Shown here: positions 15,816 through 35,236 of the stretch, in pieces
Position numbering within the stretch: position 1 is the stretch's first letter
How the letters are laid out: each line of letters begins with the position of its first letter
Source of the DNA: Bacillota bacterium
Lineage (GTDB): Bacteria; Bacillota; Sulfobacillia; Sulfobacillales; Sulfobacillaceae
Direction of reading: 5' to 3'
Length of the DNA stretch: 36,803 bases
Assembly: GCA_023512105.1 (NCBI GenBank)
Contig: JAIMAE010000013.1
Location: forward strand, 1-36,803
Notes under the pieces: model-generated
The model's database searches: none
What the model was told of the DNA's origin: nothing
The model's input: only the letters and a program-made list of their open reading frames with translations
Program-made: the position numbers and the translations under genes

Positions 15816-16220
15816 TTTCTGAATGTTATTGTTCCGCTCTATGGGACTGGAAAAGCGGAAACCGGAGAATCAGAGCGAGCGCCAGAAACCCCATCGATGT
15901 GGTGGTTCGCTGCGATGGTGCTGGCCATGCGGGAGCAGGAGGCCCACATCGAGGGTCCGTGGGGATCGCCGTGGCATCGTCAATAGGCTCGACTTGCAGC
16001 ACGTCGAGCATCCCCTTCTTTTTGTAACCGGGGGCTGCCGCGCAGTCGCCATCGCCTGGAACACCAGAACCCATGCGAGTGGCCGGGGCGCCACCGCGCC
16101 GCGTAGCAGGAATCGTTCCTCCGCGGCGGGACCAGGCCCTAGCCATTCCATCACAGGAACAATGCCAGCATAGTACCGTGCGAATCCTCGAAGGAGCCGG
16201 CCCGAATCCAGCGCGCCGTG
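15816..16220. other. Stretch without a convincing gene
   Basis: Minus-strand frames contain two short hydrophobic pieces (ALAWVLVFQAM-like and SMGFLALALILRFPLF) in different frames, perhaps the remains of one small membrane protein downstream of the nuclease/helicase gene. No start with a good ribosome-binding site is seen. Confidence 0.35.
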
Positions 16221-20085: not shown

Positions 20086-21084
20086 ATGACTAGACAATGG
20101 AGACACCAGCTAAGTTGCGTTGAACTCTGTGCTGGAGCGGGTGGGTCCGCGCTTGGCCTGGAAATGGCCGGCTTTGGACATGTTGCCCTTGTTGAGATAG
20201 AACGAGACGCCTGCGACACTTTGGCGGCTAATCGGCCAGAATGGAACGTGATTGCAGGAGACATTCGTCAGATAAACGGCCGAGAATATCGTGGTGTTGA
20301 TCTGATTTCGGCCGGCGTGCCGTGCCCGCCTTTCTCTGTTGCCGGAAAACAGCTTGGTCCTGATGACGAGAGGGATCTCTTTCCTGACACGCTGCGTATC
20401 ATAGAAGAAGCAAGACCTAATGCGGTGCTTATTGAGAACGTTCCAGGGTTTGCCTCGAACAAGTTCGCTGACTACCGCAACCGCGTGGTGAACCGGCTGC
20501 ACCGAATGGGCTACCACGTCGAATGGACGGTTTTACAGTCGTCCGACTATGGCGTACCACAATTACGCCCACGCTTTGTTTTGGTTGGAATACGGACGCG
20601 CCGAGCGCTGTTGTTTCGGTGGCCTGCGGCGTTAGGAAGCGCGCCCACAGTCGGCGCAGTACTGCGGGACTTGATGGGTGAACGAGAATGGCCGGGTGTA
20701 GAACTGTGGGCCGAATTCGCCAACGACATTGCACCCACAATTGTGGGTGGGTCGAAGAAGCATGGAGGGCCTGACCTTGGCCCTACCCGGGCGAAGGAGA
20801 AGTGGGCTAAGCTCCATGTTGACGGCATGGGAATCGCGGATACTGCCCCAGGTCCAGAGTTTCCTTTGTATGGCAAACCTCGCCTAACAGTTCGCATGGT
20901 GGCTCGAATTCAGGGGTTTCCTGATACGTGGGTGTTCAGGGGCGGCAAGACTTCGACCTACCGCCAGGTGGGGAACGCCTTTCCACCGCCGGTCGCGCGC
21001 GCTGTAGGCTTGGCGGTATCCACATGCCTTGTCGGTGATGATTTGGCCACACAGTTGGCTGTGGGAGGCGCTCTAGTTGACTAG
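20086..21084 (+). CDS. DNA cytosine-5 methyltransferase
   Basis: 332 residues from ATG 20086; the ribosome-binding site is weak (TTAGGG). It transfers methyl from S-adenosylmethionine to C5 of cytosine. Family motifs in order: ELCAGAGGSALGLEMAGF (motif I, from residue 13), VPCPPFS with catalytic Cys80 (motif IV), ENVPGF with Glu117 (motif VI), DYGVPQLRPRFVLVG (motif VIII) and YRQVGNAFPPPVA (motif X). The target-recognition region between VIII and X is short, about 130 residues, as in single-specificity enzymes. Its end overlaps the restriction gene by 8 nt, so this is the modification half of a type II system. DISARM class 2 also uses a C5 methyltransferase, so it might serve both. Confidence 0.92.
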   Translation: MTRQWRHQLSCVELCAGAGGSALGLEMAGFGHVALVEIERDACDTLAANRPEWNVIAGDIRQINGREYRGVDLISAGVPCPPFSVAGKQLGPDDERDLFPDTLRIIEEARPNAVLIENVPGFASNKFADYRNRVVNRLHRMGYHVEWTVLQSSDYGVPQLRPRFVLVGIRTRRALLFRWPAALGSAPTVGAVLRDLMGEREWPGVELWAEFANDIAPTIVGGSKKHGGPDLGPTRAKEKWAKLHVDGMGIADTAPGPEFPLYGKPRLTVRMVARIQGFPDTWVFRGGKTSTYRQVGNAFPPPVARAVGLAVSTCLVGDDLATQLAVGGALVD

Positions 21085-21946
21085 TATCATTGCTGAGGCT
21101 CGCCAGCAATACCACACTGAGCTCATTCGTGCAGGAGTACTCGGTTTGCGAGCCGGCAACCCGTCGTTTGCTGATGTTGGCAGTAAGACGAGTCTGGATA
21201 TTGCGCAAAGGTTAGCAAAGGTGTTGGCAATCCACACGGGCATGACTCTAGAGAAGACCGAAATGAGTGGGCAGACGCTAGGCAAAAAATTCACGGACAT
21301 CACGATGCAGTTCGTGCAGCGTTGTTTTGATAAGCTTGATGGTGTCAGGCCAGGTCCATGGCGCTATGAAACGGAGCAAGGGATCTCCCGCTTTGTCCAA
21401 TACCGTCACCTTGCCCATTTAGCCGAGTTAGCAGAGAGCAACCCTGACCTTCGTTCTCTCTTGGGATCCGACTACGTGGTGAAGCCAGACATCGTTATTA
21501 GCAGGTTGCGGCTCAAAGATGAGGCGTTTGGGAGCGGGGTCATTTCGGAAGAAGATCGGGTAGCTATGGCCACTCCTTTGCGGGAACAAAACTCGGGCAA
21601 ACCCGGATCTCCGGATCCCATTCTCCATGCCTCGATAAGCTGCAAATGGACAATGCGGAGCGACCGTGCCCAAAACACCAGAACAGAGGCCTTGAACCTC
21701 ATTCGGCACAGGAAGGGCAAGGTTCCCATCATAGTGGCTGTGACTGCCGAACCCATGCCGACGCGGCTAGCTTCACTCGCTCTAGGCACTGGCGATATAG
21801 ACCGGGTTTATCATTTTGCACTGTATGAGTTGCAAGAGGCTGTGCGGGAAAGTGAAAAGGACGACCAGTGCGAGATGCTAAACGAGTTGATTCATGGCGA
21901 GCGTTTATCCGACATCAGCGACCTGCCGTTTGACCTGGCGATTTGA
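21077..21946 (+). CDS. NgoMIV-family type II restriction endonuclease
   Basis: 289 residues from TTG 21077, with GGGAGG 8 nt upstream inside the methyltransferase gene; the 8-nt overlap suggests translation after the methyltransferase. The PD-(D/E)XK core shows as VVKPDIVIS (Asp138) and HASISCKWTMRSDRAQNTR (Lys190), with Glu62 in TEMSGQTLGKKF as the likely extra acid. The spacing PD-x(51)-K with SCKW is the special layout of NgoMIV, Cfr10I and SgrAI-type enzymes. NgoMIV cuts GCCGGC as a tetramer, so a GCCGGC-like site is a reasonable prediction, not a proof. All catalytic residues are present. Its 3' end overlaps the convergent glycosylase gene by 42 nt. Confidence 0.85.
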   Translation: MTSIIAEARQQYHTELIRAGVLGLRAGNPSFADVGSKTSLDIAQRLAKVLAIHTGMTLEKTEMSGQTLGKKFTDITMQFVQRCFDKLDGVRPGPWRYETEQGISRFVQYRHLAHLAELAESNPDLRSLLGSDYVVKPDIVISRLRLKDEAFGSGVISEEDRVAMATPLREQNSGKPGSPDPILHASISCKWTMRSDRAQNTRTEALNLIRHRKGKVPIIVAVTAEPMPTRLASLALGTGDIDRVYHFALYELQEAVRESEKDDQCEMLNELIHGERLSDISDLPFDLAI

Positions 21947-22582
21947 TGAACGTAAAGCCCGGCGATATCGGCAACCTTTTTGAAGAGGGCAAACAGGGCA
22001 CTGGGGTTTTACGGTGCAAATGGTCGCAGCAAAATCCAAGATCGCATAATAAAACCTTGGTTCTTGACCCCGGGGACAACTAGATAACACTTTTTCGGCA
22101 ACGCGAAATAGAGAAGATTTGGTTCTGGGAACCGTTCCATAGAAATACCTGCCACCAAGACGCCCAACATTGACATCGGGTAGAGCGGCACGCTTTTGGT
22201 GTGCAAATACCATAACGGCACCAGCCGTGTACGGGCCAACATGGGGAAGGCGCATGAGTTTGTCTCGTTCTTCAGGAACCGAGCCAATCTCTAGAATGGC
22301 GTGCGCCAGTTCTCTGAGAGCTCGGGCCCTCTGGTATTGTAGCCCTAAGGGGGTCAAAACTTGTAGCAACAGCTCATCTGGCACCGAGGTTAGAGCCATA
22401 GGGTTAGGGGCCAAGTTGATTAGAGTAGGATAGACCTTTGCCACTTTTTGGGCGCCAGTTTGCCGAAGCAACAGTTCCGACACTAGCAGTTCCCAAGGTG
22501 AAACTCGGGGGTGGCGCCAGGGGAAGTCGCGGTAGTTAGTCTCTGACCACTTCAGGAGCCGTTTAGCAAGTACATAGCCCAA
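21905..22582 (-). CDS. HhH-GPD DNA glycosylase, Mig-like (T:G mismatch)
   Basis: 225 residues. I chose TTG 22582 because AGGAGG lies 9 nt upstream; the frame stays open to 22672 but without such a site. The EndoIII/MutY fold is clear: WRHPRVSPWELLVSELLLRQ at the start, then LPHVGPYTAGAVMVFAH, ALPDVNVGRLGGRYF, and a 4Fe-4S loop C-x5-C-x2-C-x5-C (Cys189 to Cys204). At the residue that is Lys in EndoIII and Ser in MutY, this protein has Tyr118, and the catalytic Asp136 is 18 residues on. Mig of Methanothermobacter has Tyr126 and Asp144, the same pair and spacing. Mig excises T from T:G mismatches made by deamination of 5-methylcytosine and is also encoded beside a C5 methyltransferase. It is therefore the probable mutation-avoidance partner of this system. 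Confidence 0.8.
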   Translation of the reverse strand: MGYVLAKRLLKWSETNYRDFPWRHPRVSPWELLVSELLLRQTGAQKVAKVYPTLINLAPNPMALTSVPDELLLQVLTPLGLQYQRARALRELAHAILEIGSVPEERDKLMRLPHVGPYTAGAVMVFAHQKRAALPDVNVGRLGGRYFYGTVPRTKSSLFRVAEKVLSSCPRGQEPRFYYAILDFAATICTVKPQCPVCPLQKGCRYRRALRSSNRQVKRQVADVG

Positions 22583-22817
22583 TGAAGCATTCCTCCTGTT
22601 GATCTTGCCATGTCTCTTCAACCATAAAAATACCCGTAAGACCGTTAAGCCGGCCGGTGTCGGTATACCCATACGGCAGGAATTTTTAGCTGGTCGTCGA
22701 AGAGCAAGTTAGAGACTGGCGAGAAAACACATGTTAACGCTGCATTCCAATCCCGAAGGCTCATGCGCCGGTGATGTGGAATAGCCTAACGGCTAGTGTT
22801 AAGGGGTAATATGTAGC

Positions 22818-23645
22818 ATGGCACGTTCCGCAAACGCACAACTTGCAGTAGATATGTATAATACTCTCCATGCTAAATACGGCTGGAACCCATCTAGGGC
22901 ATGGGAGGGAATAGCGAGGCTGCTACTTACGTGCGAGGTATGGAGAGATGGCCAGTGGGTTGATTTTCACAACGTGGTAGTGTATCGCGAAAGCAACGAG
23001 TTTCCGAGAGATGCTACGGCGCGGAATGCCGCTCTCGAGAGGGCGGAACGATTAAGCACCTATTTGGCTCTATGCCTTGGGGTTTCTCCTCAGCAGCTGT
23101 GCTCTGAGATAGGACTCTTTTGGCGCCATGCCCAAGTTAGGTCCTTACAGCCCCACAATCTCGTGGGAAATGCCTTTCGTTCCTTAGTCGTTCGCGTTCT
23201 TGAACAGTTTGGCAGTTCCGATGTTATGTATGAAGAGGAAGTTAACCCTCATGAGTTATTTCCAGGCCATACATTTCATACACGAAGTAGCAGCCCCAAG
23301 GTGGACATAGTTGCCTACCGTGACGGTACACCTGTTGCTCTTATCTCTACACGCTGGCGATATCGCCACGACCGGGTAGATGTAGTTGACGAGGCGCTAG
23401 CATATATGCCGGCAGCACGCAGAGCTAATCCTTTGTGCCGATTCTATGCAGTGACCGGCGAATTTTCCCCTGCTAGGCTTAAAAAGATCTTAGACAATTG
23501 CCCGCCCATGATGCCAACGGGGGCGATCTCTGGTGCTGTTCATTTTGCTCCCCACTTGATAAGCCGGGGACTCGGAGAGAACGGGAGAGTCAAAGACCTC
23601 CACGATCTCGAATGGCTCATAGGCGAAACAGCCTCGTGGAGGTAA
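22818..23645 (+). CDS. Restriction-nuclease-like protein with altered active site
   Basis: 275 residues from ATG 22818, with AAGGGG 11 nt upstream. The N-terminal 120 residues are helical; the rest has the look of a PD-(D/E)XK core: SPKVDIVAYRDGTPVALIST and then RWRYRHDRVDVV. Asp163 followed by S-T-R179-W-x-x-R-x-D-R repeats, residue for residue in the key places, the S-C-K-W-x-x-R-x-D-R block of the NgoMIV-type enzyme next door, except that the catalytic Lys is Arg. The two proteins are otherwise unlike. It could be a restriction enzyme with an unusual active site, or an inactive binding partner. No second methyltransferase is adjacent. The 235-bp gap from the divergent glycosylase gene should hold both promoters. 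Confidence 0.6.
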   Translation: MARSANAQLAVDMYNTLHAKYGWNPSRAWEGIARLLLTCEVWRDGQWVDFHNVVVYRESNEFPRDATARNAALERAERLSTYLALCLGVSPQQLCSEIGLFWRHAQVRSLQPHNLVGNAFRSLVVRVLEQFGSSDVMYEEEVNPHELFPGHTFHTRSSSPKVDIVAYRDGTPVALISTRWRYRHDRVDVVDEALAYMPAARRANPLCRFYAVTGEFSPARLKKILDNCPPMMPTGAISGAVHFAPHLISRGLGENGRVKDLHDLEWLIGETASWR

Positions 23646-23930
23646 GAGGGGTTGAGGGATGGATAGGGAAGATTCCCGATTGGAAATTGAAGCCCGTTTG
23701 AGAGGCGCGTTAAAACGAGAGGCCCGTCAAGTGTTACATTAACCTTGTTTGCTCCAGTTTGTTTTGATTGTAGAGCGGCGTTTGTGAAGGCTCAGACAAC
23801 AGCGGTGTCACCATCGTGGTTCACTGGAGTCTGCGGCGCTCATGTTGTAAATCTTTGGGTGAGTATCTGCTTGTCGATTCCTCGGTGCGGCTAGTCTACC
23901 GAGAACGAAGATACTGCCATTGATTATTGC
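23646..23930. other. Short gap, one tiny open frame
   Basis: A 27-codon frame at 23658-23741 (MDREDSRLEIEARLRGALKR followed by EARQVLH) has GAGGG just upstream and reads like the start of a helical protein. It stops without a domain, so it may be the 5' stub of a lost gene. The rest separates two convergent genes; CTCGGT/ACCGAG near 23880-23904 is a weak hairpin without a T tract. Confidence 0.25.
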
Positions 23931-24674
23931 TTAGCACCTTTTTAGCTTCATAGCCAGGTTGTCTAAAGTATTGCGATCAGGCAACCAGATTTTCCCAAAT
24001 CCTCTGTGGGCAATCTGAACGTCATGGATCCTAAATTTATAGGCCCAGGTCTTGGGATCACGCTTCCTAAGTAACTTCGCATTTGGAACGTAGATCCGGA
24101 TCAAGTTGAAACCGAACCACAGGTCAGTCTGGAGCTGAATGTCTGCAAATAAATGGTATTTGACCTCAATCTTATGGCGTTCCTTTAGGTATATCAAAAC
24201 ATAAACTTCCCTGAATGCCGAATTGTAAGCGTTACCGAGTCTCCACCTCAATGCTCGCATTTTTGACTCGTACGAACCAGGGATGTGAGCTAGTGCATCT
24301 AAGAAGTCTTGATAACAACGAAGACCGGTATCCTTCCTTAAATAGGAATGGAATGCAGAAAAGGTAGGGATCTTATTAGTCGACTCGATCATCTCGTGAA
24401 ACACGCATACGAGAGGAAACATGGGACGTAGATCTTCAATGACCGGGTGGGCTTCCCTAGCTTTGACATTGGCTAGGGGGCGGTTATCAATGTGGCCCGT
24501 TTCAATGGTCTGGAGAACCTGTTCAATGTCTTCGATGGTGAAGTGATATAAACGACGGTGAACGAACTGTTTCACGTACTGCTGCACCTCGTTGCTAGCA
24601 GACCACGAGGCAAGCAGCTTGTATCCCCCGTTGGAGACCAAGTCCCGGTAGCAGTCGCCGAACGTTACTTCCAT
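23931..24674 (-). CDS. Unknown protein of the DISARM-like operon
   Basis: 247 residues from ATG 24674, with AAGGAG 7 nt upstream. It follows the drmB gene by 88 bases on the same strand and is the last gene of the leftward operon. The first half is helical (ASNEVQQYVKQFVHRRLYHF; VIEDLRPMFPLVCVFHEMIE). The middle reads like strands of an alpha/beta enzyme (REVYVLIYLKERHKIEVKYH, then LFADIQLQTDLWFGFNLIRI), and acidic residues close to Lys could belong to a nuclease core. There is no HxK motif, so it is not the phospholipase-D protein DrmC usual at this place. Not recognised as any known family. Confidence 0.7.
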   Translation of the reverse strand: MEVTFGDCYRDLVSNGGYKLLASWSASNEVQQYVKQFVHRRLYHFTIEDIEQVLQTIETGHIDNRPLANVKAREAHPVIEDLRPMFPLVCVFHEMIESTNKIPTFSAFHSYLRKDTGLRCYQDFLDALAHIPGSYESKMRALRWRLGNAYNSAFREVYVLIYLKERHKIEVKYHLFADIQLQTDLWFGFNLIRIYVPNAKLLRKRDPKTWAYKFRIHDVQIAHRGFGKIWLPDRNTLDNLAMKLKRC

Positions 24675-24762
24675 CCGATTCTCCTTATGCTACGTAAAAG
24701 TTCACTCGCATCCAGCGAACAGGCTACTATCTATGCTCCTATAGTGTATAGTGGCTCCGCTA

Positions 24763-26645
24763 TCAGGCGAAGAAGCCCTGAAGCGACTGGCCGTCTCCTA
24801 CTACTACGCCACGGTCGAGGAACCGGTTAAATCGTTCACAAGCCGTTTCTGGCAGGAGTGCGCAGTTGTGGCAGGCAGCCAGGTTTAACGAATCTGGGCC
24901 CTGCCCCCCTGGCTCCCTAACTCCAAGCATACTGGGTCTGCCGAACACCAGGAAGCCTTAGCCAGTGCATTGCCCAGAACCGAATCGAATCGCCCAGGTA
25001 GCCCCATTTGCACCAAGCCGCCCAAGGTGCCCTCTGCATCGCCGGCGGCAGTGTAAATGAGCAGTCCTGCCATAGGATGCTTCGGATTGTCGGAAACATA
25101 TAGGCGTTCACGCAGGGATGCCGTGCTGTACCCGCACTCGTAGGTGAGCTCATTGATGAGCAAGTGGGATAGCGTATGAACCAGCACAAAAACCGGCGAA
25201 ATCCTTTTTCCGTGTAGTCCTCGCATAGCCAGCGAGGTTTGATAGCGCATGTTCAGCGGTTCAAAGCGGTCGAGCAGCGCCGCTGACTGGGAGGTTTGCC
25301 AGGCAACTAATGTCTGGAAGTTAAGTTCTAGAAAGATGCCTTCTCCGTGAACAATGTACGCGGGAAGCCATCTCTTCCCTGGTGGGGGAGGGTTTCTCCA
25401 TAACATGGCCAGGCGCTCGCCCAGGGTCTGATTAGATTCGGGGTACACCCGGGTAAAACCGGCAAAGGCGCGAGTCTCTCGCATGCGGTCAATGAGCATT
25501 ATGCGCGAGAAGTGTTTCTTTATGGTTGGCTCGTACTGCTGTACTTCTACACTTCTTACCTGCAGTTCGCGGTGGTTATGGGGCTCTTGGAGAACGCGGT
25601 ATTCTTCGTAAAGGAAGGCCGTGTCGGGGTCATGGTCAGGGGTGCTGTCGTCCGCTGCCTGAGAATGCACTTTTGTACGTTGCTGGATTGCGGTCATGAT
25701 TTGGTCATCCGAAAATGAACCTAGCAGTTCCGGGTGTTGACGTCGCAATATCCCTCCACTTAGCTGCCCAGCGCCCTGAAGAATCTCGACGAGTTGCCAA
25801 ATTCGTTCCTCTCTGAGCGCAGAGTCAAGCTCCTCGGGAATACTGATGTCTTGGGGCAGGTAAATAGAGCTTCGGATCTGAGCAAAATACACGTTGCTAG
25901 CGTTTCTGAGTGCTCCCCGAAGAGGTCGGCCACAGAGCTCTCTGGCTTCAGCCCCTAGCCACGGCTTGCTTCCTGTGCAGAGAAAGGGCCTTCCAGCAAA
26001 ATCCAAGGTAGAACTCAATTCGGTTGTCGTGCCATCTGGCGCAGCGTTTGTGATTCCTGCGAGTGTCCGCGCGGGGGTGCCGCAACCTTCACAGGTGACC
26101 CGCTGGTTAGCTAAGGTCAACCCTCCAGTAGAGCGTAGACGCAAAGGGCCATGGCAGTCGGGGCTGGGCGTGCGGTGCACCCATTCATTCCAGGGGAAGT
26201 CATGAAGGTGGCCGAAGTCACATATGGTTACAAAAGGAACCTGGACAAAGTAACTCTTCCGGCCGCGGGCTTCGCAATCCGGGCAGGGCGGCAACTTGCG
26301 GGCCGTGTCGGGAAACTTTTGGAGGAGCCCGCACCGTCGGCAGTAATGCCACGTGGGAAAGCGCAGGCAGGGGATTTTAAGGTCTGCATTAGGGGTGAAG
26401 ATCCCGCGCCGAGGTATGCGGTAGTCTGGTGGCATATAGAAGCAATCAACACCGAGTTGCTTCTCGAGGCGTTCTTCCTTAATGTAGAACTCCTCCGTTT
26501 GGACTGGTACCTGATCAGGATTACTACGATTAAACCAGTGGTCAAGTCCGCAAACAATAAGTGAAATACCGTCCCGCATTATTATCATGGCTCCTACACC
26601 GAACGGCGCTATGAGCTGACCGCGGCGAATAGGCCAGTTAGGCAT
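24763..26645 (-). pseudogene. drmB: DISARM-like DrmB (DUF1998), frameshifted near the 3' end
   Basis: The start is ATG 26645, with AAGGAGAGG 6 nt upstream, overlapping the drmA stop by 8 nt (ATGCCTAA). The N-terminus PNWPIRRGQLIAPFGVGAMI is typical of DrmB. A zinc knuckle (Cys102, 105, 121, 124) and a second cysteine-rich part (CEGCGTPARTL) follow. The DUF1998 region has FVLVHTLSHLLINELTYECG and then WCSADPVCLE. At a run of six G (24904-24909) the frame goes wrong and stops at 24885. With one G added the frame continues QGPDSLNLAACHNCALLPET and so on to FFA at 24763, giving 627 residues and the other half of the C-terminal Cys cluster. As it stands the product lacks those last two-fold cysteines. 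A decayed, phase-variable or mis-sequenced gene are all possible. DrmB is a core DISARM protein that acts with DrmA. Confidence 0.85.
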
Positions 26646-29600
26646 CGAGATCCTCTCCTTGGCTGACATAGATAAACCGCTCAGTGATTTCGGCTTCGCA
26701 CTGAGCATCCACGTGCCTCAGTGACCGCAATGTGGGCCACGCCATCTGGCGCTGGGCCGCGCTTATATAACTTCCTGCGGTGTATAGCAAGGGTTGGGAA
26801 GCATTGTCTCGCGGTTCCCAGTCGGTTCGTTGCCATCGTTGCCATTCTTCCAGCCGCTTCTGAAACACGTTTTGAGCTTGCGCTATAGCTTCAGGTTGCG
26901 CGACGGCAACGCGAGCTTTCAACGTGTTGAAGAACTGGTCGAGTAACTGTGCGGGACAAGGATAGGGACTTCTTCCTACTTTCTTGTCACCGTGCTGACG
27001 TACATAGCCAACCATGAGTGCATGGAGTCCCCGTTCCAGTGCTGGTGTCGAAAATGGTGTTACACTGGAAGGCTCAACGTAAGAATAAAGTCGCTGGTGG
27101 TAACTACGAAAGTGCTCGTAATGCGAGCGATCCCGAGGCTTCGATGCATTGTAGAGTGTCACCACGAGTGCGGGTCTTTCCGTCCACCGGCGGCCTACGC
27201 GTCCGGTTACCTGGATATATTGCGAAGTGGTTTTAGGCTGGCCTGCTACCACCATTAGGGAAAGGCGGTCGATGTCTACCCCAACCTCAATTATGTTTGA
27301 GGCAAGGCAAACATCAACGACTCCCTTAACACCGTAGGGAGTTTCCAGTGACGTAATAGCTCCGCTAATTTCTCCGCTCCTCAAACGGCTCGTTAACTCT
27401 AAGATGTTGCTAACCCGGCGAATCTCACTCCAACGGATTCCAAGACGATTACCTATCGCTTTTAAGTGATCGGGTATGTCCGACTGTAGCAGAGAAATGG
27501 TAGTGCCCAATTCTCTCAGGCTGTTAAAAAACGCCAATACCGTCCACCATGCATCGCGTTGCTCTTCGGGAAGTTGGTTTGCCGCTTCCAATAGCCCAGC
27601 GATTGTCCACACTTCTAGCGACTGCATGGATCTGAGGGCGGGAGCATACACACCGACGTACAATGTTCCAGGGGCGCGTTGACCATTGGGCAACGTGGCG
27701 TGCTGGCTGAAGAAGGAATCCGATATATCGAGCCCTGGAGGAGGAAACACCCGCGCCTTGGGCCTAGCGTAAAGGCGCCGGATTTGCTCTTTATATCGCC
27801 GCGTGGTTGCTGTCGCGCAAACAATCTTAGGCACTACCACCCCTTGCTTCGTCGGTTCTTTGCACAAGTCGGAAATCAGAGTCTCGTACAGGCCGACAAG
27901 TGACCCTAGAGGACCACTCATGAGGTGCAACTCGTCTTGAATTATCAAAGAGGGAGGAGGGGCCGCACGCGAGCCATCATCTTTTAGTCCGAAAAGAGCA
28001 CGAGCCTCGGGCTTCCATGCTAACATCGCGAATTTATCGACTGTGGCTACGACAAGTGTGGGTCGGCGTTCGTAAATGTCCTCATCAATCGTAACAACCG
28101 GCAACTCCGCGTGGAAAGGGCACAAAGGGTCGGGACAGTGGGGGATCACAGTGTCACGCGAGCGAACGAAGCCAATCACTGGCTGAGTGGTCTTTCCCTT
28201 TTCGACAACCCGCCCCATTTGTGCTCCACACCACGGGCATCGGTCGAGCAGGAACGGATTTTGGTCGCCTCCTTTTTTTGATAGGTTTCGATAGGCTTCG
28301 ACGGCATCCTTCCTTGTGTTGGGGGTTGTCTCCCCTCCCAGCCAGATCCCAACCTGAAACGGGGTGCTACCTAATTCCTCATGCTGCCGTCTCAAGAATT
28401 CCATAGCGCATATCAGACGGGCAGCTCGCAAGAATTGCTGCGCCGTTAAGAGGCGGAGCGAATATCTCATAAGTGCCGTGACTCCAGTCGCGGAGGAGTT
28501 CCGTATGCGCTGCAGAAATGCCCCGAATGCTATTAATGCGAGGTATGCTTCGGTCTTTCCACCTCCCGTGGGAAACCAGAGCAAGTCTACTGTTTCCCGA
28601 TTGGGATCTGACGGCTCGCCAACTGACTGTATGGTGGCTAAGAGAAAGCCGATCTGAAACGGACGCCAAGCAAAATTAGAATTAAACGGGGCAGTTAACG
28701 GGGGCTGGTACTGGCCGGTTATTCTAAGGCCGTTGTTTTGATAAGAGGCTCTGCGCATAAGGCGCGGGCGTGTGGCTTGCAAGGATATGGCCTGATTCAT
28801 GAGCACGAAGGCCTTCCGCGCCTGCGGATTTTCGCGGAGGTATTGAATTCCATTCTTCATTCGCTCCCACGCTTCATCAGCTTCTGATAAATTCCTAGTA
28901 GCAATGTCGCGGTAGTCCTCCGCAAGCGATGTGATGCGAGACCCTTGAACTTGTATCCAGCTTTTGTACAATGCGGTGAGTTCGTCGAGAGCGGCGAATC
29001 CTTTTGAAGCGAGCGTATCCTCGTCGGTTAAAATTCCAATCGGTATTTCCAAGGATGTGCCGTCTGCCCGGCGAACATCTGCGGTGATGCTGGGAACCTC
29101 GATGGACGGCATAGGCTCTCCGTACACCGTGGTGGTGCGGTGGTTTTGGGGGTCTTCCCAGTTCGCAGCGCACCCGTGACCTACCGCAAACGTCTGGGCG
29201 TTGGAATACAACAGGCCTAGCGAGCGCAGTTCGTCATCATCGACCGGTCCTAGCCTATGCAGTTCAGGATAAGGAAGTATCATGCCATCTGGCCCACGCG
29301 CGACCGATATTTGTAGGTGACATTGGAATAAGGCCCTTTCATCCACAGCCTCATCACCGTTGCTTTCGTTTACTATCGCAACGGTGACGAGCCAAGGGCA
29401 CCCTTCTATTCTCTCATATCGGCGCGCGTGAGTGACCACCTTAATGTCAAGACCTTCAGTTCCTTCCTCGGTACGGGAGGTGGGTTGCATCTGCACCGCA
29501 CGCGAACTTATGGCCGTGTGGATTGTTGTTAGGCAAACGGGGCTTCTCACCCACCATGTCCACGCTCGCGTCCCGACCCTTACGGGCAATCTGTGATATC

Positions 29601-30069
29601 GCCCCGCAGTAAATGTAATCTTCATCTCAGCTCCGTCAGGAAATTCTGTCAAAAAGCTAACGCCCATGGCACTTGGGCGGTAAGACCCAGTGAAACTGAG
29701 CTCAAAGTCATCGTCGGTCGACCCCCCGTCTAAGCTCTCGCCTCCATCTGCTTGCGTGCCGACTGTGCCAGAGGAATCGCCGTATACATCATCAGAGTCT
29801 TCCAATGGCGCTTGATCTGGTTGAATACAGTCCTCCATTTGGCCCGTGGGGTACAAAACCCCTAACCCATACTGCTGAGTTGGGGTATTTCTAGTTAAAA
29901 TTTCTTGACCCGTTGCAGCGTCCCTCCAGGGCCCCCGTGCCTCCTCTTCGGTTGCGAATATGATCGGCTGGGAGCAATCGAGGTCGCGGCCTCCGCAATT
30001 GGGCCCCAAAAGTTCGCTCCGAAGAAATTTCAGTAATCCATTCCGTGCCGTGAGGTTTTGTTCTAACAT
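26638..30069 (-). CDS. drmA: DISARM-like DrmA, SF2-type helicase
   Basis: 1143 residues from ATG 30069; GGAG lies 14 nt upstream, a weak fit. The N-terminus FLRSELLGPN and GLGVLYPTGQ matches the DrmA start pattern. The acidic stretch at about 85-125 is probably a linker. Helicase motifs: WFPTGGGKTEAYLALIAF (Walker A, about 500), IIQDELHLMSGPLGSL (motif II with DELH, about 710), CATATTRRYKEQ (motif III), NIIEVGVDIDRLSLMVVAGQ (motif V), and YIQVTGRVGRR (motif VI, about 955). All are intact. In DISARM, DrmA with DrmB loads on DNA with 5' overhangs and blocks phage DNA. Together with DrmB downstream and the DrmE-like genes upstream this defines a DISARM-related operon. A Druantia DruE-type helicase is the alternative, but that is one long protein with DUF1998 fused. 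Confidence 0.88.
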   Translation of the reverse strand: MLEQNLTARNGLLKFLRSELLGPNCGGRDLDCSQPIIFATEEEARGPWRDAATGQEILTRNTPTQQYGLGVLYPTGQMEDCIQPDQAPLEDSDDVYGDSSGTVGTQADGGESLDGGSTDDDFELSFTGSYRPSAMGVSFLTEFPDGAEMKITFTAGRYHRLPVRVGTRAWTWWVRSPVCLTTIHTAISSRAVQMQPTSRTEEGTEGLDIKVVTHARRYERIEGCPWLVTVAIVNESNGDEAVDERALFQCHLQISVARGPDGMILPYPELHRLGPVDDDELRSLGLLYSNAQTFAVGHGCAANWEDPQNHRTTTVYGEPMPSIEVPSITADVRRADGTSLEIPIGILTDEDTLASKGFAALDELTALYKSWIQVQGSRITSLAEDYRDIATRNLSEADEAWERMKNGIQYLRENPQARKAFVLMNQAISLQATRPRLMRRASYQNNGLRITGQYQPPLTAPFNSNFAWRPFQIGFLLATIQSVGEPSDPNRETVDLLWFPTGGGKTEAYLALIAFGAFLQRIRNSSATGVTALMRYSLRLLTAQQFLRAARLICAMEFLRRQHEELGSTPFQVGIWLGGETTPNTRKDAVEAYRNLSKKGGDQNPFLLDRCPWCGAQMGRVVEKGKTTQPVIGFVRSRDTVIPHCPDPLCPFHAELPVVTIDEDIYERRPTLVVATVDKFAMLAWKPEARALFGLKDDGSRAAPPPSLIIQDELHLMSGPLGSLVGLYETLISDLCKEPTKQGVVVPKIVCATATTRRYKEQIRRLYARPKARVFPPPGLDISDSFFSQHATLPNGQRAPGTLYVGVYAPALRSMQSLEVWTIAGLLEAANQLPEEQRDAWWTVLAFFNSLRELGTTISLLQSDIPDHLKAIGNRLGIRWSEIRRVSNILELTSRLRSGEISGAITSLETPYGVKGVVDVCLASNIIEVGVDIDRLSLMVVAGQPKTTSQYIQVTGRVGRRWTERPALVVTLYNASKPRDRSHYEHFRSYHQRLYSYVEPSSVTPFSTPALERGLHALMVGYVRQHGDKKVGRSPYPCPAQLLDQFFNTLKARVAVAQPEAIAQAQNVFQKRLEEWQRWQRTDWEPRDNASQPLLYTAGSYISAAQRQMAWPTLRSLRHVDAQCEAEITERFIYVSQGEDLDA

Positions 30070-30093
30070 AGAGTTCCAACTAGCTCCTCTCGT

Positions 30094-31587
30094 TCAAATA
30101 AACTGATTCTCCTTGCGTAATCGTCCTAGCTCGGAAATGGGCACGTAGTAAGTCTTTGGCGCAATGGCCTCAACCACAAATGCCCCATGATTGCCCCAGC
30201 CCGTTTCAGGCATGACTAACTCAAGGTACCCTTGCTCCCATAAGGTTGTGAGATCAGAATGTTGTAGGCTTTCGAGCAAAATGCGTCTAAGCTCTAAGCC
30301 CGCTCTTCTGTGAGCAAGATATAGCCTGCGCGCGTTCTTCCAAAAAGATTTGGGGTCACCAGGAAGGCCGACCAGCCGAGCCACAGCTTCGAAGTCTCGA
30401 TACTTGCGAGGGCTAATGCTCTGCTCCATAGCCCAGTACCTTACGGTGTGTTCGTTGGCTCCTTTGCCGCCCAGCTCACGGAGGCGAGCTGCGGTGTCTG
30501 CGGCCCCCTGATTAGTCAACCAGACGCGCAGGGGGGCTTTCCATTGCGCCTGCAACGCTTGCATCTCCTCGTATTGATCAGCGCCTAGCAACTGTCTAGC
30601 GAACGCCTCAACATGATCTCCCGAATCAGATATGCGGAGAACGATTGCAATGCCTGGATGTAGGGCACTGATCGCGATTCGGTGAAGAGTCGCTTGGGGA
30701 GGGCTTGCGTCGGTGCCTATAGCCATAGCTGTGCCATCCTGTGCCAAAAATACTGTCGACCCATCACCTAACTCTATTAAGCGCGCAGGCACAACGTCTA
30801 TTTTCTCTCGGCTACTCGATTCAAAATCCTCCTGCCGCACGAGCTTGTTCCAAGGCCAATCGAAGTCATCGGTCGCCTGAAAAGTGGCAGTCAACACTAT
30901 CGTGGAGGGCTCATGCTCACGGTCAAACCAAGGAGCAGGCAGTTGAGCTGGTAGCCATTCGTGTACCACCAACTGCAGATTGCGGATCCGTGGAGATCGG
31001 AAGATATACTGGGGAAACCACTGGGGGCTGCCGATTGCAACGGCACGGTCATATACATTAGACTTTCTCAATGCATAAGGGTGTAGTACCCGCACGTGAG
31101 TTTCTAAAACATCGTATGCCAGCGGCTCAAAGATGTGGGCAAGGCGTGGTTTTGGCAACAGAAGAATGGGGCTTTCGCTATCCATGTCTTGAACAAGGCC
31201 TTTCGTTGCACGGAGCAGGGGGGACTCGTCCCGGTGCCTTAATCTGTCTAGTCGCTGGATTAGGTCTTCGCAGGTTAATTGCAGGGCGGGATAAAATCGG
31301 GGGACCTGAATGAGGCGCCGAAGCGTATCCTCATAGTCATGCGGCGTTAGGAGCCGCTCGTTGGCCGACGGGATCGGCAAAACCGCTAACAGAAACCGGT
31401 AATAGCGGAGAGTACTGACTACGGAAGCGAGTATACCTCCCTTATCATCACCGACTTGAGAGGATAGATGAGAAATTATGTGCCAGAAGCGTTTCAACTC
31501 ATCATCCACGACGCGGTGAGTGTAAACCTCAAAATGTTCATAGCACTCATAAAGATGAGAGCATTCATTCATAGTTATCAAGTTCAT
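30094..31587 (-). CDS. DrmE-like protein, C-terminal part
   Basis: 497 residues from ATG 31587, with GGAAGG 10 nt upstream; a GTG at 31596 overlapping the previous stop by 4 nt is the alternative. It lies 24 bases before drmA. The C-terminal third has GANEHTVRYWAMEQSISPRK, then YRDFEAVARLVG, a (T)-V-R-x-W-(6)-I-x-P...D-x-x-A block that I associate with DrmE of class 2 DISARM. A helical N-terminal half and a beta middle part (STVFLAQDGTAMAIG) carry no enzyme motif. Together with the 333-residue product it makes about 830 residues, the size expected of one DrmE. The role of DrmE is not settled in known systems. The family call is from memory of the pattern and gene order. Confidence 0.6.
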   Translation of the reverse strand: MNLITMNECSHLYECYEHFEVYTHRVVDDELKRFWHIISHLSSQVGDDKGGILASVVSTLRYYRFLLAVLPIPSANERLLTPHDYEDTLRRLIQVPRFYPALQLTCEDLIQRLDRLRHRDESPLLRATKGLVQDMDSESPILLLPKPRLAHIFEPLAYDVLETHVRVLHPYALRKSNVYDRAVAIGSPQWFPQYIFRSPRIRNLQLVVHEWLPAQLPAPWFDREHEPSTIVLTATFQATDDFDWPWNKLVRQEDFESSSREKIDVVPARLIELGDGSTVFLAQDGTAMAIGTDASPPQATLHRIAISALHPGIAIVLRISDSGDHVEAFARQLLGADQYEEMQALQAQWKAPLRVWLTNQGAADTAARLRELGGKGANEHTVRYWAMEQSISPRKYRDFEAVARLVGLPGDPKSFWKNARRLYLAHRRAGLELRRILLESLQHSDLTTLWEQGYLELVMPETGWGNHGAFVVEAIAPKTYYVPISELGRLRKENQFI

Positions 31588-31592
31588 GGTTG

Positions 31593-32594
31593 TCACGCCT
31601 TCCGAGTCAAAAACGTGGTTGGTTTAATTTTCGAAACGGTGGGCAGCTGGACCGCAGGATTCGGGATTGCTTGTTGAGCGTATTCCGCTTGTAGCCCTCG
31701 TAAGGCATCTTCAAATAGCGGCTCGCTTGGATCCAGTACGACGATGCTGCGGGTTGGCCGTACAGTCCAGTACGAGTCAATGAAGGCGCGGGCCCCATTA
31801 AAGAGAACTACGTCCGGCGGAGCTTTGCTTTCAGTAAGCCGACTGCACAGCTCTGTGCGGTAGGGCTGAAAAGTTCCCTTTTGAATTCGGACTATGTCGT
31901 CCAGCGTTCCTTCAACATCCTGATCTGGTACTCTTAGCCTTAACAGTGCTTCGTGGCGCACTATATCTGAATGCCCCACAACTACACAGTTTCGTACGGT
32001 CACATGTTGAAGTTTTTCCGCCGCTTCGTGGCCGAGAAGCTGGGCAACAAACCGCTCATTGCCCACTACTTCGCGTCCTTTTTGGTGGCTGGGAAGGTTG
32101 GGCACCGGTGAGGTGGTAAGCGGCCTGACCAAATAGGCCCTGGATTCAGAGATTAGCTCCTCAAGATTCCCGCCGGCCTCTCCTTGAAGCCGCAGGCGCA
32201 AGCGCCTCTCGCCCTCAATCTCAGTCGTACCCATGAGTGCACCTTTTAGGACGCGCTTTCTTCGGCTATACGTAGCAGGCGTACCACAGGGCAGCGAAGA
32301 CAAGTAGTTAAAGTAACTTGAAGGATCATCCGTTTCTTTTTTGACAAGTGCTACGACAATGCCAACGGCGAGCCAGAGAGCAGCGTAATTAAGAATGGGG
32401 AGAACTAGCACCGTCGTAAGTCTGGAAGACGGGGGGATGACACACGTCGCAGCGTTCTGCCCGACGGCAGCCAGCTGACGGCACCAAGAAGGAATAGGGT
32501 ACCATTGTCCTGCCTCATGAAAAGCCAATGGGGAGTCAGAGATTGCCCAATCGTTTTTATGGATCCCGACGAGGCTGCCCACTGGATACCACAC
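31593..32594 (-). CDS. DrmE-like protein, N-terminal part
   Basis: 333 residues from GTG 32594, first gene of the operon; the ribosome-binding site is weak (GGTAGG just before the start). A hydrophobic segment (LTTVLVLPILNYAALWLAVG) could be a buried helix of an alpha/beta fold rather than a membrane span. Further on come LRLRLQGEAGGNLEELISES, VVLFNGARAFIDSYWTVRPT and RSIVVLDPSEPLFEDALRGL, which resemble a nucleotide-binding or helicase-like domain without a Walker A. Its stop lies next to the start of the 497-residue gene in the -1 frame, as expected for a split protein or coupled pair. I read the two as DrmE halves; separate unnamed proteins are possible. Confidence 0.6.
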   Translation of the reverse strand: MWYPVGSLVGIHKNDWAISDSPLAFHEAGQWYPIPSWCRQLAAVGQNAATCVIPPSSRLTTVLVLPILNYAALWLAVGIVVALVKKETDDPSSYFNYLSSLPCGTPATYSRRKRVLKGALMGTTEIEGERRLRLRLQGEAGGNLEELISESRAYLVRPLTTSPVPNLPSHQKGREVVGNERFVAQLLGHEAAEKLQHVTVRNCVVVGHSDIVRHEALLRLRVPDQDVEGTLDDIVRIQKGTFQPYRTELCSRLTESKAPPDVVLFNGARAFIDSYWTVRPTRSIVVLDPSEPLFEDALRGLQAEYAQQAIPNPAVQLPTVSKIKPTTFLTRKA

Positions 32595-32633
32595 CTACCG
32601 TCCACAGCATAACAGGGGAAGAGTGCAAAAATA

Positions 32634-32662
32634 ATTGTAGTAAGTTATTTCTCGAGTGTCAA
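32634..32662 (-). promoter_or_regulatory. Sigma-70 promoter of the DISARM-like operon
   Basis: On the minus strand, TTGACA (32662-32657) and TACAAT (32639-32634) are spaced by exactly 17 nt: a full-consensus -35 and a 5/6 -10. The expected start site is near 32627, about 33 nt before the GTG at 32594. The IS4 end lies 12 bp upstream of the -35 box, so the promoter survived the insertion. Confidence 0.8.
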
Positions 32663-32674
32663 ACTATGCAATTT

Positions 32675-33921
32675 CTGAGCCATCCCCAGTTTTGGGGCAG
32701 TGCCCGGGGAACGCAAAAAGGAAATCCCCTCGCTGACCGCGAAAGATTAGGTCGTCACACCATCATGCGGAAAGCGAGGGGTATCTCCATGGCGAGTGTA
32801 CCACAATGGGAGGCGTGGTGGATGACCCAGATGGGCTCGTTGCGCCGATCGCAGGCAAAAACGTTGGTAGCCTGTATGGCGGGGTTGATCCGCGATGGGC
32901 ACCTGGGCGTCGCCGCCATCGGGCGCGCCATGCCGGGGCCGGTCGCCCCGAAACACCGGATTAAACGGGTGGACCGGTTTTTGAGCGACGCCCGGCTGGA
33001 CCGGGATGCAGCCCGTGCCGATCGCATCCGGCTCGTCGTCATGGGCCGGAAGGTGGTGCGGGTCATTATCGATGGGACGGATGTGCATGATGGCCATCAG
33101 ACCCTGGTGGCGGCGATCGTCACGGGGCATCGCCGGGCCCTGCCGGTCGCGGCGGAGACGGTGGCGAAGGCAGACCTGACCTTGCGGCAAAACGCGATCG
33201 AACTCGCGTTCCTACAGCGCGTGCGGCGGCTCTTTCCCCCCGGCTGTCAGCCCATCCTGCTGGCGGACCGCGGCTTTTGTCGGGTCGCGTGCCTCGCGGC
33301 CGCCGAGGCCCTCGGATGGCGGTACGTCATTCGGCTGACCGGTGACCGGTGGGTGGACACGCCCGATTACACCGGGATCCTCCACGACCTGCCGGCCCGC
33401 CGGGTCCGCTGGGGGGATTGGCGCCGGGCCGCCATCACGAAAGCCCGGTTCGTGACCCGGTTGATCGCCACTTGGGCGGAGGGGCAGCAAGCACCGGGGT
33501 TTCTCGTCACCAATCTCCAATACGTCTCCACCGACCAAGTCATCCGCGAATATGCCCGCCGGTTTCAGATCGAAGAATGCTTCAAGGATAGCAAAAACAG
33601 CCACCGGGGCGGGTTGCGACTGCGGGGGGTACACGTTACCCGCGCCGATCGGTGGAACCGCCTGTGGGTGATTTGGATGTGGGCCTATGCCTGGCTGTCG
33701 TGGGTGGAGCGCTGGGCGGAGGACACGGGCTGGGCACGCCGCCTGCGCGCCAACACCGTCCAGCACCGCACCCATGCCTGTTGGAAGGTAGGCTGGTACG
33801 CGTGGCGTGAACTGCATCCGTCGCTGGACGCCCTGTTACCGTGGCAGCCACGGCTGCTACTGCTCACGCTGGAGTCCCTTCGCGGGTAGTGAATTACGTA
33901 GTTAAAGTGGGGATCAGTCAG
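32675..33921 (+). mobile_element. IS4-family insertion sequence, apparently intact
   Basis: The ends CTGAGCCATCCCCAGTTTT (32675-32693) and, inverted, CTGACTGATCCCCACTTTA (33921-33903) match at 14 of 19 positions. The length is 1247 bp with one intact transposase gene. No target duplication is visible in the flanks (...ATGCAATTT and ACCATGTCA...), so ends may be off by a few bases or the copy is old. Confidence 0.75.
32789..33889 (+). CDS. IS4-family transposase
   Basis: 366 residues from ATG 32789, with GAGGGG 7 nt upstream; ATG 32765 is an alternative. The DDE residues are complete: VRVIIDGTDVHDGH (first Asp), PILLADRGFCRVACLAAAEA (second Asp) and YARRFQIEECFKDSKN (Glu), the last being the Y-x2-R-x3-E-x6-K signature of IS4-family enzymes. 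The N-terminal 100 residues (AKTLVACMAGLIRDGHLGVA, PKHRIKRVDRFL) form the usual DNA-binding part. No lesion is visible, so the element could still move. It reads away from the DISARM-like operon towards the AlbA_2 gene, with which it is convergent. Confidence 0.9.
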   Translation: MASVPQWEAWWMTQMGSLRRSQAKTLVACMAGLIRDGHLGVAAIGRAMPGPVAPKHRIKRVDRFLSDARLDRDAARADRIRLVVMGRKVVRVIIDGTDVHDGHQTLVAAIVTGHRRALPVAAETVAKADLTLRQNAIELAFLQRVRRLFPPGCQPILLADRGFCRVACLAAAEALGWRYVIRLTGDRWVDTPDYTGILHDLPARRVRWGDWRRAAITKARFVTRLIATWAEGQQAPGFLVTNLQYVSTDQVIREYARRFQIEECFKDSKNSHRGGLRLRGVHVTRADRWNRLWVIWMWAYAWLSWVERWAEDTGWARRLRANTVQHRTHACWKVGWYAWRELHPSLDALLPWQPRLLLLTLESLRG

Positions 33922-34015: not shown

Positions 34016-35236
34016 TTACGGCAACACCCAAGGAACTGGGCTATGTTGCCAAAGCCACCTCTCAGCGATCTGCTTGACGCTATCTTCGTGGTGTAGATAT
34101 CCTGAATCATCGAGACAACGGATCACGAAATCGATGGCAATATCGAGTAGAGGCTCCTTTGCGCGCCGTAATGGGCCGTAATGCTGCGCTAGCCGGTAGC
34201 CATTTAGATGAACGGGTACCGTTTTTTCCGCCGAAAATAGTCCTTCGGGAGTGATACCGTCTTCCGGCCAGTTACTCAACGAGAGTTGGATATCGGAGCA
34301 GTAAAAACCAGGGAAAATGCGCTGGAGAGTGTCATCCTCACAAATGGACGAAAGCATGCTAGCTAAGCGGTGTGTCACCCACTGCAAAGGAATTGGACTT
34401 AATTGGCCTCGTGCCTCGAAGGCCACCACTCCTTGGCTGTTAAAGCGCAGCCAAACGTGCGGCGTAGAGAACCGTTCCCGTACTCCATCGATGGCATCCC
34501 TCGCTTCGAAAAGACCGTATGCGGACCGCCACTGGTAAGAGGAGACTGTTCCAGAAATAGGTGCCGCGGTTCTGATCGGGAACCGCCGGAGCACGAACTC
34601 CTTTAGTTGCGTCTTGACCTGGCTGTCGAAGACGGGGGGAACGTCGGAGAAGCGCGCCACCACTGTGAGCCAGTAACCATCCGCGTTGGCCATGGCAGCA
34701 TTACTGGCCCATTGCAGATATGTGGATGCCCTCGGATCGCGAGTGTATTCGTCTGCACTGAAAAGACGACGCAGCGATTCCAGGTCGGCTGGGTGGTTTT
34801 GATCGCCTACGCGGTACAGCACCCCTTTCTGATAGTGCCACAATGGCCTAGGGGCTGATTCGGCATCTACCCAAATCGCTAGAATACATCGCGAGGGATC
34901 GTGGGGAAGTGGGATTGTACGAGATTTAGGCCGATATGTAGGCCGAATATCTTGATAGCATCGGTTGCTCAGACGCTCTTCGGCGCTCGCGGTGGGAATG
35001 CCTGGGGGTGGCCATAGGGGTTGTTTGCTGCTGGTTTTACTTCGATCTTCATCCACTCCGATTAAGATGATGCCCCCATCATGATTGGCCATCCCCACAA
35101 TGGACTCGGTGACTGACTGGGAAAAGTCCCGTTTGAAATCGAGGCGCTCCGATTCAGACGGCGGCGAAGGATCCGTTAGCCACGTTTCAAGGTCTGGGAA
35201 GCTCACTGAATCGAAGTTTTCGAATAAGGCCGCCAC
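34016..35236 (-). CDS. AlbA_2 (Schlafen-type) domain protein
   Basis: 406 residues from GTG 35236, with AAGGTGG 7 nt upstream. The N-terminal 65 residues carry the AlbA_2 signature: ESERLDFKRDFSQSVTESIV (residues 28-47), then GMANHDGGIILIGVDED, where the E...K and the ANxxGGxxxIGVxD turn are conserved. GVLYRVGDQNHPAD closes the domain at about residue 145. The remaining 250 residues have no recognised domain. AlbA_2 proteins range from ATP-binding regulators to RNA-cutting Schlafen relatives and are frequent in defence islands; which applies here is unknown. A promoter lies about 100 bp upstream and an IS4 copy separates it from the DISARM-like operon. Confidence 0.8.
   Translation of the reverse strand: MAALFENFDSVSFPDLETWLTDPSPPSESERLDFKRDFSQSVTESIVGMANHDGGIILIGVDEDRSKTSSKQPLWPPPGIPTASAEERLSNRCYQDIRPTYRPKSRTIPLPHDPSRCILAIWVDAESAPRPLWHYQKGVLYRVGDQNHPADLESLRRLFSADEYTRDPRASTYLQWASNAAMANADGYWLTVVARFSDVPPVFDSQVKTQLKEFVLRRFPIRTAAPISGTVSSYQWRSAYGLFEARDAIDGVRERFSTPHVWLRFNSQGVVAFEARGQLSPIPLQWVTHRLASMLSSICEDDTLQRIFPGFYCSDIQLSLSNWPEDGITPEGLFSAEKTVPVHLNGYRLAQHYGPLRRAKEPLLDIAIDFVIRCLDDSGYLHHEDSVKQIAERWLWQHSPVPWVLP

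What the first reader, a model, noticed from the sequence alone, without database searches (positions are those of the whole stretch)
20086..32662. Three-layer defence island around a DISARM-like operon
Within 12.6 kb there is a C5 methyltransferase with an NgoMIV-type nuclease, a Mig-like glycosylase, a second restriction-like protein, and a promoter-driven operon of split DrmE-like, DrmA, DrmB and an unknown gene. The combination differs from both described DISARM classes: no phospholipase-D DrmC, no DrmD, and the methyltransferase is bound to a separate restriction enzyme. It may be a new DISARM-related type or one in decay.
Basis: partly seen in the sequence, partly recalled or inferred. 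Interest (0 to 1): 0.8.

Follow-up and report, generated by a model that had tools for sequence, protein, structure and literature searches.

The report
Split-DrmE DISARM relative beside restriction system
This stretch carries an anti-virus helicase operon from a widespread but apparently undescribed branch of the DISARM defence family, in which one large protein is made as two, sitting beside a restriction-modification system of a type that repeatedly accompanies it in unrelated bacteria.

Summary
The genes are there as described. The core, read on the minus strand, is E1 (333 aa), E2 (500 aa), DrmA (helicase motifs intact) and DrmB. E1+E2 are one DrmE-like protein made as two, not a decayed drmE. 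At least 37 loci in about ten phyla carry the same split, 21 of 34 junctions with a 4-nt ATGA/GTGA-type overlap, and their DrmA proteins form one clade (SH-aLRT 100) apart from both described DISARM classes. A plasmid placed in the clade by DrmA alone proved to carry E1, E2 and a NERD helicase across its origin.
No clade member has drmC; most have a NERD-SF1 helicase gene, absent here. 23 of 37 loci hold a C5 methyltransferase (chance expectation about 0.5 of 31; 21 seen) and 21 a Vsr or Mig mismatch-repair gene. This window's methyltransferase is closest to those of four clade loci bearing NaeI. Solirubrobacter has the NgoMIV, methyltransferase and 247-aa genes too.
Predicted structures suggest DrmE is a helicase-like protein without ATPase motifs, split between its two RecA-like lobes.
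Caveats: drmB here has a one-base frameshift that removes two zinc-binding cysteines, so this copy may be broken or mis-assembled. DrmC is often missing in DISARM. The restriction modules also occur alone.

The parts
20086..21084 (+). C5 cytosine DNA methyltransferase (ORF opens at GTG 20011; likely start ATG 20086)
   Evidence: PF00145 E 1.3e-70; 51-54% identical to the MTases of the four NaeI-bearing split-DrmE loci L007, L019, L022, L040, next best 41%; 55-60% to MTases paired with NgoMIV on plasmids
21077..21946 (+). NgoMIV-family type II restriction endonuclease
   Evidence: PF09015 E 2.5e-101; PDB 1fiu E 2e-69 over the whole length
21905..22672 (-). Mig-like HhH-GPD T:G mismatch glycosylase
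   Evidence: PF00730 E 3e-8; best PDB match 1kea 'G-T mismatches repair enzyme', 111.7 bits; PADLOC PDLC03398 E 1.3e-31
22818..23645 (+). 275-aa putative second restriction nuclease (motif VDIVAYR..PVALISTRWRYRHDR..E)
   Evidence: No library hit; 40% identical homologue overlaps a C5 MTase in Kovacikia pB, that MTase 56% identical to this window's
23931..24674 (-). 247-aa protein of unknown function, same strand and about 90 bp downstream of the drmB tail; accessory
   Evidence: No library, plasmid or viral hit; one homologue, 26% identical, beside MTase and Vsr in Solirubrobacter L019
24763..24900 (-). Out-of-frame tail of drmB (LNLAACHNCALLPETACERFNRFLDR...)
   Evidence: aligned with homologues
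24885..26708 (-). drmB (DUF1998/MZB protein), frameshifted in a G6 run at 24904-24909
   Evidence: NF038324 369 bits, cut-off 240; 94 of 100 full-length DrmB keep the CHxC motif, this one only out of frame
26638..30069 (-). drmA, SF2 (YprA-family) helicase with Walker A GKT 504, DELH 712, QVTGRVGR 953
   Evidence: NF038325 858 bits; motifs; tree
30094..31596 (-). E2: C-terminal two thirds of split DrmE (RecA2-like lobe with helical insertion, plus DrmE_C)
   Evidence: PF24957; profile match to fused DrmE 343-875, prob 99.9, E 1e-34; model pLDDT 86.5, Hef 1wp9 Z 10.4
31593..32594 (-). E1: N-terminal third of split DrmE (RecA-like lobe with a Tudor-like barrel inserted); GTGA 4-nt overlap with E2
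   Evidence: profile match to fused DrmE 37-311, prob 93.9, E 1.6e-7; model pLDDT 85.5; overlap
32634..32662 (-). sigma70-like promoter of the E1-E2-drmA-drmB operon
   Evidence: TTGACA-17-TACAAT, 11 of 12, 0.3 expected

Best explanation
A DISARM-related defence operon, E1-E2-drmA-drmB, belonging to a distinct lineage in which DrmE is made as two proteins. Most likely DrmA-DrmB is a DNA-translocating helicase that loads on invading DNA with accessible single-stranded or 5'-overhang ends (shown only for class 1 DrmAB; inferred here). E1 and E2 pair to rebuild a two-lobed helicase-like subunit without ATPase motifs that binds DNA and/or guides DrmAB (inferred from predicted folds). Self DNA is marked by 5-methylcytosine from the neighbouring C5 methyltransferase, and Mig repairs the T:G mismatches left when 5mC deaminates (known role of that family). 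Where other clade members bring a NERD-helicase nuclease, this locus probably relies on NgoMIV and perhaps the 275-aa protein to cut unmethylated DNA, with DrmAB unwinding from the breaks. Shown by computation: lineage, split, gene content, recurrent association. Inferred: mechanism and shared methyl mark. This copy may be non-functional if the drmB frameshift is real.
For: Lineage: split-DrmE loci are one DrmA clade (37 rows, SH-aLRT 100) with class 1 and class 2 outside, separated by several starred branches. Prediction kept: Deinococcus psychrotolerans, placed in the clade by DrmA alone, has E1, E2 and NERD across its plasmid origin. Split: E1 and E2 match consecutive parts of fused DrmE; 4-nt ATGA/GTGA-type overlap at 21 of 34 junctions. 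Content: DrmC 0 of 37, NERD 25 of 37, C5 MTase 23 of 37, Vsr or Mig 21 of 37, MTase plus Vsr/Mig 20 of 37; chance expectation for MTase at most 0.45 of 31, observed 21 (genome counts). GCCGGC-type nucleases (NaeI/NgoMIV families) in 5 loci with orthologous MTases; NaeI in 1 of 197 other actinobacterial genomes. Folds: E1 RecA-like with Tudor-like insert (Z up to 7.4); E2 RecA2 plus helical insertion like Hef, XPF and RIG-I (Z 10.4 over 184 residues); no Walker A in 35 E1. Class 1 DrmAB prefers unmodified 5'-overhang DNA, and its ATPase is limited by methylation (PMC9142583).
Against: No experiment exists for any member of this clade in the papers searched. 14 of 37 loci show no C5 MTase in the stretch fetched, though some stretches are short and in a few the MTase appears to lie just outside. 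NgoMIV and NaeI modules occur without the operon. In the window the RM genes are on the opposite strand with other genes between. E1's fold matches are in the range that unrelated folds reach (Z under 8). drmB is frameshifted here. The tree is a 'quick' one (SH-aLRT only, LG+G4).
Confidence: 0.62

Rival explanations
1. Two independent systems that merely share a defence island: a complete type II RM system (MTase, NgoMIV, Mig, 275-aa protein) and a DISARM-like operon, with no functional link.
For: NgoMIV-MTase pairs stand alone on small plasmids and NaeI modules occur without DrmA; the Nostoc copies have no MTase nearby; in the window the two modules are on opposite strands.
Against: MTase near 21 of 31 split loci against at most 0.45 expected; in several genomes the only C5 MTase is the one at this locus; orthologous MTases with NaeI or NgoMIV in five clade loci; in L019 the operon lies between the MTase and the NgoMIV gene.
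Confidence: 0.3
2. A degraded class 2 DISARM: drmC lost, drmE broken in two, drmB frameshifted.
For: E2 retains DrmE_C and matches canonical DrmE 287-804; drmB is frameshifted.
Against: The split is shared by a whole clade with ATGA-type coupling; class 2 DrmA lies elsewhere in the tree; DrmA motifs intact; no clade member has drmC.
Confidence: 0.07
3. The operon is an ordinary clade member in type, but this copy is inactive (real drmB frameshift) and on its way out.
For: One-base frameshift removes the last two zinc cysteines of DUF1998; an IS element sits just upstream of the operon promoter.
Against: The tail behind the frameshift is still well conserved and every other gene is open, as expected for an assembly or read error in a homopolymer or a very recent change.
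Confidence: 0.35
4. A DNA repair helicase system (MrfAB-like) rather than defence.
For: DrmA belongs to the YprA family, part of which is repair (PMC12458937).
Against: DrmA scores with DISARM DrmA models; patchy distribution (5 of 398 genomes of the phylum), plasmid copies, RM, Vsr and AIPR neighbours.
Confidence: 0.05

Closest known systems
DISARM class 2 (DrmE, DrmA, DrmB, DrmC, DrmMII; e.g. L130 and L131 here)
   Same: DrmA and DrmB as separate genes, a DrmE-family protein upstream of DrmA, C5 methyltransferase association
   Different: DrmE split in two and far diverged (no match to NF038323), no DrmC, MTase outside the operon with its own restriction enzyme, DrmA in a different clade
Fused DrmE_fam (NF038316) loci with NERD-SF1 helicase, DrmA, DrmB and C5 MTase (L041, L042, L043, L045, L053, L071, L115, L116, L119, L123-L125)
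   Same: Same gene order and partners, no DrmC; nearest relatives in the DrmA tree; E1 and E2 align end to end with their DrmE
   Different: DrmE is one 800-930 aa protein; NERD helicase mostly present (absent in the window)
DISARM class 1 (DrmD, DrmMI, DrmA, DrmB, DrmC)
   Same: DrmA-DrmB core
   Different: No DrmD, no N6-type DrmMI, no DrmC; DrmA clade outside
NgoMIV type II RM
   Same: NgoMIV nuclease with adjacent C5 MTase
   Different: Adds a Mig-like glycosylase, a second nuclease-like gene, and the helicase operon next door
ARMADA, BRIGADE, TALON, Druantia (YprA-family systems, PMC12458937)
   Same: YprA-family helicase with DUF1998 module
   Different: Here helicase and DUF1998 are separate proteins, the DISARM arrangement; no BrxHII, PglX or TBP partners seen

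Membership tests
DISARM (broad sense) | DrmA helicase and separate DrmB (DUF1998) core | tested here: met
   PADLOC DrmA E 6.5e-200, DrmB E 6.5e-64; NF038324 over cut-off; NF038325 858 bits, just under 950
DISARM (broad sense) | DrmC phospholipase-D nuclease | tested here: not met
   note PMC9142583: DrmC dispensable and often missing
DISARM (broad sense) | DNA methyltransferase in the operon | tested here: inconclusive
   C5 MTase in the island but on the other strand, paired with NgoMIV
DISARM class 1 | DrmD SNF2-like helicase and N6-adenine DrmMI | tested here: not met
   no DrmD; the MTase is C5 (PF00145)
DISARM class 2 | single intact DrmE of the NF038323 type (cut-off 250 bits) | tested here: not met
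   no NF038323 hit (own genome none); DrmE in two genes
DISARM class 2 | DrmA groups with class 2 DrmA | tested here: not met
   tree; L130 and L131 outside the split clade and its fused-DrmE neighbours
DISARM class 2 | DrmMII cytosine MTase | tested here: inconclusive
   best PADLOC model DruM2, 491.6 bits; DrmMII 141.7 bits; specificity not testable here
split-DrmE DISARM-like clade (defined here) | E1+E2 upstream of DrmA-DrmB, DrmA in the clade | tested here: met
NgoMIV type II RM | NgoMIV nuclease with active-site residues and adjacent C5 MTase | tested here: met
NgoMIV type II RM | recognition of GCCGGC | not testable with these tools
   inferred from homology only
Mig T:G glycosylase | HhH-GPD fold closer to MIG than to MutY, no MutY C-terminal domain | tested here: met
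   (1kea 111.7 bits, MutY 84 bits), 255 aa; activity not tested
Druantia, ARMADA, Dpd | YprA helicase fused to the DUF1998 module | tested here: not met
   MZB is in the separate DrmB gene

The most novel reading that the evidence does not exclude
The split-DrmE operon is a distinct DISARM-like system that carries no methylase and, here, no nuclease of its own, and is a plug-in helicase module sharing the methyl mark and the DNA breaks of whichever C5 restriction system lies beside it (NgoMIV, NaeI, or a Z1-DUF4420-AIPR set), with DrmE acting as a helicase-like subunit without ATPase that loads DrmAB on unmethylated ends.
Probability: 0.25. Interest if true: 0.75.

Novelty: new variant of a known kind. 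Interest (0 to 1): 0.58.

Why it matters
DISARM's self/non-self step, its missing nuclease and the role of DrmE are open questions (PMC9142583 asks for work on DrmD and DrmE). A lineage that has dropped DrmC, splits DrmE at a domain boundary and repeatedly sits beside C5 restriction systems lets each be tested: whether an RM system supplies the mark and the cut, and whether DrmE is a helicase-like subunit without ATPase. PADLOC's DrmE models did not report the window's or L027's E1 and E2, nor the fused DrmE of L053, so such loci are probably under-called.

Tried and rejected
Decayed class 2 DISARM: rejected for the split, kept only for drmB. The 247-aa gene as a degenerate DrmC: no PLD profile hit and no match to the DrmC HMM; its only homologue is beside MTase and Vsr in L019. 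Conserved role of the 247-aa gene across the clade: 1 of 36 other loci. Single DrmE read through a frameshift (assembly error at E1/E2): rejected, since the split and its 4-nt overlap are conserved. Viral-contig scans with E2, the 275-aa and the 247-aa protein found nothing. Relatives of the host genome: no E2 in 60 relatives, 5 of 398 in the phylum (the window genome included). A strict NgoMIV/NaeI-to-DISARM link: rejected, the modules also stand alone, and the NaeI contig of G1188 (L135) has MTase and Vsr but no DrmA on its 11 kb. The L117 DrmA was left out of the second tree as a long branch. Literature: no paper names a DISARM class 3, subtypes or variants; Bell et al. 2025 say only that the DISARM-like clade holds many uncharacterised classes. 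No known fold was listed for E2 residues beyond about 240; that part was barely tested. E1 has no detectable match to canonical class 2 DrmE, though E2 and fused DrmE do.
Full report
What is there. The island at 20.0-32.6 kb has 50-56% GC, against 65-79% in most of the sequence to its left. A sigma70-like promoter with 11 of 12 matches precedes E1, with a DDE transposase gene (PF01609) beyond it. The 275-aa protein has one plasmid homologue (40%), which overlaps a C5 MTase gene that is itself 56% identical to the window's. This makes it a likely restriction nuclease; its S-T-R-W motif resembles the S-C-K-W of NgoMIV (inference).

drmB runs into a stop after a G6 run at 24904-24909. Its conserved tail, LNLAACHNCALLPETACE..., which carries the last two cysteines of the DUF1998 zinc site, follows in another frame. 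Homologues read through ...GGQGPDS.NLAACH.CAL.PET.CE.... Either this copy is very recently broken or the assembly lacks one G.

The split DrmE is real and old. Nostoc plasmids showed the same E1-E2-drmA-drmB set. A scan of one genome per species with a DrmA profile gave 80 loci. After iterated profile searches 37 loci carry E1 and/or E2 of the split type. They come from Actinomycetota, Bacillota, Cyanobacteriota, Acidobacteriota, Nitrospirota, Thermodesulfobacteriota, Myxococcota, Chloroflexota, Pseudomonadota and Verrucomicrobiota. Profile-profile alignment puts E1 on residues 37-311 and E2 on 343-875 of fused DrmE, so together they are one DrmE. Of 34 junctions 21 have a 4-nt ATGA/GTGA-type overlap, as in translationally coupled genes.

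Phylogeny. In the DrmA tree (quick IQ-TREE) all split loci fall in one group of 37 rows with SH-aLRT 100. Two rows lacked flanks. One of them, Deinococcus psychrotolerans L008, was then shown to have E1, E2 and NERD across its plasmid origin; the other, L046, is cut by its contig end. Canonical class 2 loci, found by NF038323 over cut-off (L130 and L131, with DrmC- and MTase-sized genes after DrmB), and class 1 loci lie outside, several starred branches away. The nearest relatives have a fused DrmE of the NF038316 type, usually with the NERD-SF1 helicase.

Gene content. DrmC: 0 of 37. NERD-SF1 helicase: 25 of 37, absent in the window, in Nostoc and in Bacillales. C5 MTase: 23 of 37; Vsr or Mig: 21; MTase together with Vsr or Mig: 20. 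With each genome's own MTase count, chance would give at most 0.45 of 31 loci and 21 were seen. In several genomes the single C5 MTase is the one at this locus. NaeI-family nucleases lie at L007, L019, L022 and L040, against 1 of 197 other actinobacterial genomes, and NgoMIV at the window and L019. The window's MTase is closest to exactly those four NaeI-associated MTases (51-54%; next 41%). NaeI and NgoMIV both recognise GCCGGC (own knowledge). Solirubrobacter L019 has MTase, NaeI, Vsr, the 247-aa homologue, E1-E2-NERD-drmA-drmB and NgoMIV in one row. In Neobacillus L027 the neighbouring C5 MTase goes with Z1, DUF4420 and AIPR genes instead. The same RM modules also occur alone, so the link is a strong tendency and not a rule.

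What DrmE may be. AlphaFold models made from clade alignments are confident (E1 pLDDT 85.5; E2 86.5). E1 looks like one RecA-type lobe with a Tudor-like barrel at about 94-160 (best Z 7.4, which by itself is within the background range). E2 residues 20-222 look like the second RecA lobe with the helical insertion of Hef, XPF and RIG-I (1wp9, Z 10.4, 184 residues, 3.4 A). No Walker A occurs in 35 E1 sequences, or in canonical DrmE. I read DrmE as a helicase-like subunit without ATPase, as XPF's helicase-like domain is, cut between its lobes. This is inference from predicted folds.

Mechanism. Class 1 DrmAB loads on unmodified 5'-overhang DNA and its ATPase is limited by methylation (PMC9142583). 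By homology the window's DrmA, whose motifs are all present, with DrmB and E1-E2 should do the same. The MTase supplies 5mC as self mark and Mig repairs the deamination cost. With neither DrmC nor NERD in this locus, the cutting most likely comes from NgoMIV and perhaps the 275-aa protein. NgoMIV leaves 5'-CCGG ends (own knowledge), a possible loading site; NaeI leaves blunt ends, so this cannot be general. None of this has been tested in any clade member.

Known or new. The papers searched hold no class 3, subtype or variant of DISARM. Bell et al. 2025 (PMC12458937) note many uncharacterised DISARM-like classes without describing this one, and NCBI has a DrmE_fam model. PADLOC reported no DrmE family for E2 and E1 of the window and L027 or for the fused DrmE of L053. 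Preprints outside the library and closed papers were not searched. I file this as a new variant of a known kind.

Noticed in passing
window 21077-21946 and 22818-23645; L019:1999-3009 and 15741-16676: Two restriction-type nucleases share one C5 methyltransferase in both islands (NgoMIV plus the 275-aa protein; NaeI plus NgoMIV).
   Followed up: partly
L021, L027, L032, L039, L044: AIPR-family genes (PF10592 shown for L027; the others by clustering), in L027 with DUF4420 and Z1 genes, recur next to split-DrmE operons, a second kind of restriction partner.
   Followed up: partly
L048, L052, L054, L065, L088: Very large DrmE-like proteins (1090-1725 aa) in place of fused DrmE.
   Followed up: no
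L009:7476-8977: In Priestia megaterium pN447-3.2 E2 is itself broken into two ORFs (206 and 278 aa).
   Followed up: no
window 34016-35236: 406-aa Schlafen AlbA_2 protein on the other side of the transposase gene; possible further defence gene.
   Followed up: no
window 32700-33900 and 36540-36803: DDE transposase gene just upstream of the operon promoter, and what looks like the start of an IS21-type istA gene at the window's end.
   Followed up: partly
L053 and L123: The fused-DrmE loci L053 (Firmicutes bacterium UBA5509) and L123 (G069, same phylum as the window) have identical DrmA, which suggests that the window's host is in a Firmicutes-derived GTDB phylum.
   Followed up: partly
L010-L014, L057-L095: A further group of DrmA-DrmB operons, rich in Streptomyces and Mycobacteriaceae, without DrmE or DrmC but with UvrD/NERD-type helicases on either side of DrmA-DrmB.
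   Followed up: no
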